The translations under genes were made by a program, and so were the position numbers. Below, piece after piece: positions 27,152-27,358 of a stretch of DNA of 64,000 nt (position 1 is the first letter of the stretch; each line of letters opens with the position of its first letter). Source of the DNA: Antedon bifida (lineage: Eukaryota > Echinodermata > Crinoidea > Comatulida > Antedonidae); contig OY727097.1 of NCBI GenBank assembly GCA_963402885.1, positions 23,746,001 to 23,810,000 on the forward strand, read 5' to 3'. Under the pieces are notes generated by a model, which saw nothing but the letters and a program-made list of their open reading frames with translations, did no database searches and was not told where the DNA came from.

Positions 27152-27358
27152 ATTAGATGTTTTGTTTTTTTTTTGCCCTACTCTGACGTAATTTGTACTT
27201 TATACTAAGTTCATTTGAAAATACTTGCGAATGATCTGGAGGTCGTGGGTTCGAGGCCCACCCGAGAACTACTTGCGAATTTTTTCGCAAGTATTCTCAA
27301 ATGTACTTAGTACAATGTACAAATTACGTCAGAGTAGGGCAAAAAAAAACCATCTAAT
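27152..27358. mobile_element. Palindromic MITE with tRNA T-arm-like loop
   Basis: The left arm (27152-27231) and right arm (27285-27358) are inverse copies with roughly 90% identity, from attagatg and a T/A run through gccctactctgacgtaattt to acttgcgaa. The loop carries gtgggttcgaggcccac, a perfect T-stem/T-loop, inside gatctggaggtc...ccgagaac. The loop segment is itself bracketed by acttgcgaat (27223-27232 and 27271-27280). Confidence 0.85.

What the first reader, a model, noticed from the sequence alone, without database searches (positions are those of the whole stretch)
27152..27358. 207 bp palindrome whose loop carries a tRNA T-arm
Long inverse arms enclose gtgggttcgaggcccac, a perfect T-stem and loop, with acceptor-like flanks. 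The tRNA-like piece is itself bracketed by a 10 bp direct repeat (acttgcgaat), as if a tRNA fragment had been inserted at the tip of a MITE hairpin. The transcript would be a long hairpin with a pol III B box.
Basis: seen in the sequence. Interest (0 to 1): 0.7.

Follow-up and report, generated by a model that had tools for sequence, protein, structure and literature searches.

The report
tRNA-headed Penelope-style jumping repeat
The hairpin is one copy of a small jumping repeat that carries a threonine-tRNA-like sequence and inserts itself the way Penelope retrotransposons do, apparently copying from both DNA strands so that two copies meet head to head; we found no earlier description of such a tRNA-headed hitchhiker on Penelope-type machinery.

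Summary
The palindrome is real: 69-nt arms, 93% complementary, with a perfect T-arm at the tip. It is not a MITE with an inserted tRNA piece. The host genome (315.6 Mb; its mitochondrial code points to an echinoderm) holds a family of 254-bp units, often in tandem, with a complete tRNA-Thr(AGT)-like sequence. The T-arm is native to the unit; the 10-bp direct repeat comes from the unit's own small hairpin. The target-site duplication is TATTAATTAATA, 27105-27116 and 27358-27369. Of 43 copies classified, 27 are inverted; 22 of these have outward 3' ends at two fixed sites about 35 nt apart, one on each side, and none has the same site on both. All 27 central junctions differ. This is the "tail" signature of Penelope-like elements (PMC3846280, PMC11167929); an RT/GIY-YIG Penelope family in this genome shows it in 5 of 5 inverted pairs. 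Best reading: a non-autonomous tRNA-headed repeat inserted by Penelope-type machinery, the palindrome being two cDNAs primed from opposite strands. The helper is inferred: repeat and Penelope element share no sequence.

The parts
27105..27116 (.). left target-site duplication TATTAATTAATA
   Evidence: exact 12-nt match to 27358-27369 flanking the element (L001 converted to window coordinates; read)
27117..27231 (-). left arm: inverted partial unit, about U33 to U1 and then U254 to about U184, beginning at the A end (tail 27117-27149)
   Evidence: start set by the duplication
27232..27357 (+). right arm: direct partial unit from about U132 to about U251, ending at the B end (..CATCTAA)
27232..27268 (+). 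3' half of the tRNA-Thr(AGT)-like sequence (3' side of the anticodon stem, variable loop, T-arm, 3' acceptor strand)
   Evidence: aligned to the unit; the full tRNA is called by ARAGORN and Rfam in sister copies
27245..27261 (+). T-arm GTGGGTTCGAGGCCCAC, containing the B-box-like GGTTCGAGGCC
   Evidence: pattern hit
27271..27292 (+). native small hairpin ACTTGCGAA-TTTT-TTCGCAAGT after the tRNA; holds the T6 run 27280-27285 and explains the direct repeat
   Evidence: present in the tandem units of L031 (one of the five has an 11-nt longer and one a changed version)
27358..27369 (.). right target-site duplication TATTAATTAATA

Best explanation
The window holds one insertion of a non-autonomous retroelement whose 254-bp unit carries a complete tRNA-Thr(AGT)-like head and recurs in tandem. 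It inserts as Penelope-like elements (PLEs) do. The target is cut with a stagger that leaves short duplications (roughly 8-13 bp once bases shared with the element's own ends are allowed for, by eye), and both freed DNA ends prime reverse transcription inside the RNA at one of two start sites about 35 nt apart (A near unit position U35, B near U254). The two cDNAs grow toward the tRNA-like region, stop at variable points and are joined head to head, giving a palindrome whose tip is whatever the longer cDNA had reached, here the T-arm half of the tRNA. Shown: the family, its tandem units, the tRNA, the A and B ends, the duplications, the different junctions, and a PLE family with the same end pattern in the same genome. 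Inferred: that this PLE (or a relative) supplies the protein, that both strands are primed in one event, and that multi-unit transcripts are the templates.
For: Tandem 254-bp units with tRNA-Thr(AGT) in ARAGORN (14 of 18 loci scanned) and Rfam at 41.4 bits. Of 43 copies classified, 27 inverted: 22 A/B, 3 B/other, 2 A/other, 0 A/A, 0 B/B; 16 direct: 11 end in A, 4 in B, 1 other. Duplications at score >=10: 19 of 33 copies (mismatched flank pairs reach this in 0.6% of 1056) and 4 of 10 further places. All 27 inner junctions differ. The genome has GIY-YIG loci (51 matches, 150 of 270 candidates scored); one 852-aa frame has RVT_1 and GIY-YIG between 98.6%-identical 647-bp tandem repeats. Of the 51 listed matches, five neighbouring pairs within 10 kb lie on opposite strands and 5 of 5 diverge, 3' ends outward; each of the five has one short end (P606-626) and one long end (P645-651), 20-42 nt apart, with 12-15 nt shared flanks. 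PMC3846280 and PMC11167929 describe these traits for PLEs.
Against: The repeat and the PLE of L084 share no detectable sequence, unlike LINE/SINE pairs that share a 3' end. None of the 100 listed A/B-junction places (of 156 counted) lies within 40 kb of any of the 51 GIY-YIG matches. No hammerhead ribozyme was found in the tandem stretch tested or in L084. 14 of 33 copies (10 none, 4 weak) and 6 of 10 further places (4 none, 2 weak) gave no duplication at score 10. Five of 27 inverted copies have one end at neither site. Each of the L031 units has a T6 run soon after the tRNA, which should end a pol III transcript before the tail, so the template's promoter is unexplained. The tRNA is not more conserved than the rest (14 of 71 against 37 of 183 variable positions, p = 1). 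PMC11167929 saw no strand difference in start sites in vitro, so strict A/B pairing is not something that paper predicts.
Confidence: 0.75

Rival explanations
1. An ordinary SINE mobilised by a LINE, the palindromes being twin-priming inversions made on multi-unit RNA.
For: tRNA head, variable target-site duplications and 5' truncation all fit LINE-mediated insertion; LINE-type reverse transcriptase frames are present, for example L083 925-3348 (RVT_1 only).
Against: Twin priming (recalled) puts the second start at scattered internal places, whereas one end sits at the B site (U240 or more) in 25 of 27 inverted copies and one at the A site in 24 of 27. No poly-A or short tandem 3' tail was seen by eye in the flanks printed. 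The same two-end pattern is found in the resident PLE.
Confidence: 0.12
2. PLE-type insertion, but the inversion arises by self-priming of one strand, as PMC3846280 proposes for head-to-head Penelope palindromes (on an antisense template), not by priming from both target strands.
For: That paper's discussion prefers self-priming to explain palindromes at inverted junctions (passages); the unit is rich in hairpins.
Against: Self-priming should make the second arm copy the first, so that both outer ends are alike or randomly short; instead one is A and the other B in 22 of 27 and never the same. The inner coordinates of the two arms differ widely, from 0 to more than 200 nt. A PLE protein has been shown to extend both strands in vitro (PMC11167929).
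Confidence: 0.15
3. A MITE or other DNA transposon with unequal terminal inverted repeats that captured a tRNA gene.
For: Outward ends are fixed and the hairpin form looks like a MITE.
Against: Each inverted copy has its own internal junction (27 of 27). 16 of 43 copies are direct with a truncated other end, and several of these still have duplications: L019, L020, L056 and, with one mismatch in 16, L074. Duplication length varies.
Confidence: 0.06
4. The unit is the pseudo-LTR of an undetected PLE family that acquired a tRNA, surviving as ORF-less copies, rather than an independent repeat that hijacks a PLE.
For: Tandem units with a tail and inverted copies are what pseudo-LTRs look like (PMC3846280).
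Against: No listed A/B-junction place (100 of 156) lies within 40 kb of a listed GIY-YIG match; the three multi-kilobase spacings inspected were a nested LINE-type insertion (L083) and duplicated segments (L081, L082). Only 150 of 270 GIY-YIG candidates were scored, and a PLE without a recognisable GIY-YIG domain would be missed.
Confidence: 0.2
5. Satellite DNA whose tandem and inverted copies arose by unequal crossing over and local inversion.
For: Tandem period of 254 bp.
Against: Copies are scattered over many contigs, with few units each in those mapped, and many are flanked by short duplications of local DNA.
Confidence: 0.02

Closest known systems
Penelope-like elements, EN+ Penelope/Poseidon type (PMC3846280, passages read; PMC11167929, parts 1-2 of 4 read)
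   Same: Tandem or partial-tandem units, head-to-head inverted terminal unit, 5' truncation, a tail of about 31-40 nt on one of the two inverted ends, short target-site duplications, AT-rich sites (by eye here).
   Different: No RT/GIY-YIG frame in the 254-bp unit, no ribozyme found, and a complete tRNA-Thr-like sequence instead; no sequence shared with the resident PLE of L084.
Metazoan retrozymes (PMC7761336, passages read)
   Same: Small non-coding tandem units of ~150-300 bp, proposed there to use PLE machinery.
   Different: They are defined by a hammerhead ribozyme; none was found here at E <= 10 in the stretch tested. Here the insertion ends themselves carry the PLE signature and the unit has a tRNA head.
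tRNA-derived SINEs
   Same: tRNA head, no coding capacity, repeated and dispersed, target-site duplications.
   Different: SINEs are described as depending on autonomous non-LTR elements (PMC5753468, passages; its scheme counts Penelope among these, but its examples of helpers in the passages seen are LINEs). Here units are tandem, with two internal 3' start sites and frequent head-to-head inversion.
MITEs
   Same: Short, non-coding, hairpin-like.
   Different: Junctions differ in each inverted copy, many copies have no second inverted end, and duplication length varies.

Membership tests
Penelope-like element | one ORF with reverse transcriptase and GIY-YIG endonuclease | tested here: not met
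   the 254-bp unit is too short for such a frame; the resident element L084 meets it
Penelope-like element | tandem or partial-tandem units (pseudo-LTRs) | tested here: met
   L031, 5.3 units of 254 bp; block tables
Penelope-like element | inverted unit head to head, 3' ends outward | tested here: met
   27 of 43 copies classified
Penelope-like element | 30-40 nt tail on one of the two inverted ends | tested here: met
   22 of 27 inverted copies A/B, 0 A/A, 0 B/B, 5 with one end at neither site
Penelope-like element | short variable target-site duplication | tested here: met
   19 of 33 at score >=10, null 0.6% of 1056; 4 of 10 more places
Penelope-like element | minimal hammerhead ribozyme in the pseudo-LTR | tested here: not met
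   no Rfam hammerhead up to E = 10 in L031 1900-3400; none up to E = 5 in L084 either, so this test may miss the minimal form
tRNA-derived SINE | tRNA-related head with pol III box sequences | tested here: met
   ARAGORN tRNA-Thr(AGT) in 14 of the 18 loci scanned; Rfam tRNA 41.4 bits
tRNA-derived SINE | transcribed by RNA polymerase III | not testable with these tools
   needs RNA data; a T6 run follows the tRNA
tRNA-derived SINE | 3' end shared with a helper retrotransposon | tested here: inconclusive
   no match to the L084 PLE; LINE 3' ends not searched systematically
MITE | fixed inverted ends, one conserved interior, fixed duplication length | tested here: not met
   27 different junctions in 27 inverted copies, direct truncated copies, variable duplications
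Retrozyme | self-cleaving hammerhead ribozyme | tested here: not met
Functional tRNA gene | intact cloverleaf with a paired acceptor stem | tested here: inconclusive
   units of L031 score 41.4 bits but the Rfam alignment covers model positions 3-68 of 71; the window copy has only the 3' half

The most novel reading that the evidence does not exclude
A tRNA-headed, SINE-like parasite of Penelope-like retrotransposons. Its unit is reduced to a tRNA plus the cis-acting start region, and tandem arrays are its replicating form because internal initiation needs RNA downstream of the start sites. The strict pairing of one A end with one B end in inverted copies, in the parasite and in the host's PLE alike, would mean that each insertion uses both start sites at once, one for each DNA strand, as a coupled two-strand reaction.
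Probability: 0.45. Interest if true: 0.75.

Novelty: new variant of a known kind. Interest (0 to 1): 0.6.

Why it matters
How Penelope elements insert is largely unsolved; [quoted passage not shown] A compact non-coding repeat with hundreds of candidate places (584 and 951 first-look regions, mostly unscored) gives a natural data set: which RNA sites start cDNA, how often both strands are used, where cDNA stops and how ends are joined. If it is moved by a PLE, it would extend the SINE idea to elements that parasitise PLEs. It also shows that a hairpin which looks like a MITE with an inserted tRNA can be a by-product of reverse transcription.

Tried and rejected
tRNA insertion into a MITE: rejected. 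Twin priming by a LINE: disfavoured because second ends are fixed. Hammerhead or other ribozyme: none in the stretches tested. Helper PLE sharing the tail: looked for by BLAST of the unit against L084 and by the distances between the 100 listed places (of 156) and the 51 (nearest 40.8 kb); none found. Selection on the tRNA: a first comparison that counted gaps suggested it, but counting substituted positions removed it (14 of 71 against 37 of 183, p = 1). Stops of cDNA clustering at the post-tRNA hairpin: seen by eye, not tested, because the first search used the window palindrome and biases the set. A wider PLE search with the L084 protein never ran. Literature: ten searches in open-licence papers only; none of the listings or passages seen describes a tRNA-headed element moved by a PLE, but short nonautonomous Penelope elements are mentioned in PMC6685494 (passages), and Craig et al. 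2021 (PMC8557442) was not held. Passages of PMC8969392, PMC12910113 and PMC4918200 were also seen.

Full report
Observation. The palindrome at 27152-27358 is real. Its arms are 27163-27231 and 27284-27352, 69 nt, 93% complementary, 52 nt apart. The RNA folds far better than shuffled sequence, z -14.9. The loop holds GTGGGTTCGAGGCCCAC at 27245-27261, and the 10-nt repeat acttgcgaat is at 27223-27232 and 27271-27280. No other copy was found in the window (the only strong hits are the element itself and its own inverted arm; the next has E 0.16).

Host. The window is part of a 315.6-Mb assembly in 27 contigs. The COX1 gene on contig C27 makes sense if AAA is Asn, ATA Ile, AGR Ser and TGA Trp, which is the echinoderm/flatworm mitochondrial code (recalled). 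An echinoderm is most likely; the species is not known.

The family. Searching the genome with the palindrome gave 158 matches from 40 scored of 584 candidate regions; searching with a 267-base piece of array gave 118 matches from 40 scored of 951. Both are lower bounds. Many of the places are tandem arrays, for example L031 1933-3291 with 5.3 units of 254 bp. Each of the five full units of L031 contains a tRNA-Thr(AGT)-like sequence called by ARAGORN and by Rfam at 41.4 bits. ARAGORN finds it in 14 of the 18 loci I gave it; L001 (the window copy), L002, L005 and L037 have none. In unit coordinates (U1 = CTCAACTCCC.., U254 = ..CATCTAATTA) the tRNA is about U98-168 and is followed by the hairpin ACTTGCGAATTTTTTCGCAAGT. 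The window copy keeps only the 3' half of the tRNA.

The small hairpin after the tRNA contains ACTTGCGAA and its complement. The left arm is an inverted copy of the region to the right of the tRNA and therefore ends, at its inner edge, with ACTTGCGAA again. The direct repeat follows from the geometry and is no insertion scar.

Ends. For 43 copies (duplicate loci of one place counted once; L081 and L082, which lie in duplicated segments, left out; places that were not fetched also left out) the outer ends were mapped to the unit. Inverted copies, 27: 22 have one end at the A site (U20-46, mostly U28-42) and the other at the B site (U240 or more, mostly U249-254); 3 are B/other and 2 A/other; none is A/A or B/B. 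If the two ends chose A or B independently with equal chance, 0 same-site copies in 22 has probability 2^-22 (by hand). Direct copies, 16: 11 end in A, 4 in B, 1 other, the opposite end being truncated at varied places. The inner junctions of the 27 inverted copies are 27 different coordinate pairs. L011 and L013 look like a diverged subgroup and gave no duplication.

Duplications. In one search, 19 of 33 copies have an identical flank word at score 10 or more (10-17 nt, part of which can be shared with the element's end by chance); 4 more have weaker ones and 10 none. Left and right flanks taken from different copies reach 10 in 0.6% of 1056 pairs. In one search, 4 of 10 further places reach 10 or more (one of them 16 nt with one mismatch), 2 are weak and 4 none. 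The window copy has TATTAATTAATA on both sides.

A Penelope element with the same signature. The GIY-YIG profile gives 51 matches from 150 scored of 270 candidates. L084 holds an 852-aa open frame with RVT_1 (9.9e-10) and GIY-YIG (2.8e-6) between tandem 647-bp repeats, 98.6% identical. Among the 51 listed matches, seven neighbouring pairs lie within 10 kb: two are head to tail (2586 and 2588 bp apart) and five are on opposite strands; all five diverge, with 3' ends outward. I fetched the outer ends of all five. After trimming the shared flank words (12, 14, 12, 15 and 12 nt, no null computed), each has one end at P606-626 and the other at P645-651 of the 2589-bp period, 20-42 nt apart. Of seven further single 3' ends (L084, L091, L094-L098), three are long, three short and one in between (by eye).

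Literature. PMC3846280 (passages) describes Penelope inserts with an inverted pseudo-LTR head to head, a 31-bp tail at one of the inverted pseudo-LTRs and a 9-bp duplication, and a host gene mobilised in trans between pseudo-LTRs; it prefers self-priming on an antisense template to explain the palindromes. PMC11167929 (parts 1 and 2 of 4) shows that a lizard PLE protein cuts and extends both strands and starts reverse transcription at two adjacent internal RNA sites, the stretch between them being the genomic tail; it saw no difference in start site between the strands. PMC7761336 (passages) proposes that ribozyme-bearing retrozymes use PLEs. In ten searches of open-licence papers I saw no description of a tRNA-headed element moved by a PLE.

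Mechanism. The ends, duplications, truncations and head-to-head inversions follow if PLE-type protein cuts an AT-rich site, both DNA ends prime cDNA inside a multi-unit RNA, one at A and one at B, and the two cDNAs are then joined. In the window the A cDNA covers 115 nt (27117-27231) and stops in the hairpin beside the tRNA; the B cDNA covers 126 nt (27232-27357) and stops in the anticodon arm. Steps shown: ends, duplications, arms, junction. Steps inferred: helper identity, priming from both strands, multi-unit template. Against or unexplained: the unit and the L084 PLE share no sequence; none of the 100 listed A/B-junction places (of 156) is within 40 kb of a listed GIY-YIG match; no ribozyme was found; and the T6 run after the tRNA should stop pol III before the tail, so the tRNA is perhaps not the template's promoter. 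The tRNA shows no excess conservation in this young set.

Verdict. The hairpin is explained and the MITE-insertion reading is dropped. What remains is a more interesting object: a small tRNA-headed retroelement with Penelope-type ends. It works like a PLE; it is not a PLE by membership, since it has no RT/GIY-YIG frame.

Noticed in passing
window 19889-19899 (+): A second B-box-like GGTTCGAATCC, the only other match to the pattern searched, lies just left of an inverted-repeat element and may be the remnant of a different tRNA-related repeat.
   Followed up: no
window 19964-20070 and 53282-53388: Two copies of one inverted-repeat element (arms AACGCAACGCAAGTGAATTGACCAATCAC..), probably a MITE family.
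   Followed up: no
window 34189-34362 and 40732-40883: Two inverted-repeat places share the arm word TGTCTACACTATCAAACT, another probable MITE family.
   Followed up: no
window 1456-2532 (-): Open frame of 358 aa with a DDE_Tnp_4 domain (3.6e-25), Harbinger-like by recall.
   Followed up: partly
window 4092-4688 and 7886-8871 (-): Fragments of LTR-type retrotransposons: Pao peptidase (3.7e-23), RVT_1 (7.3e-24) and RT_RNaseH (1.4e-9).
   Followed up: partly
L081 and L082: Tandem duplications of about 5.9 and 6.1 kb (97% and 100% identical over the overlap held) that carry copies of the 254-bp element; a third A/B junction 7.5 kb beyond L081 is listed.
   Followed up: partly
L083 185-3390: A 5'-truncated direct copy of the element with a LINE-type reverse transcriptase frame (808 aa, RVT_1) apparently inserted inside it.
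   Followed up: partly
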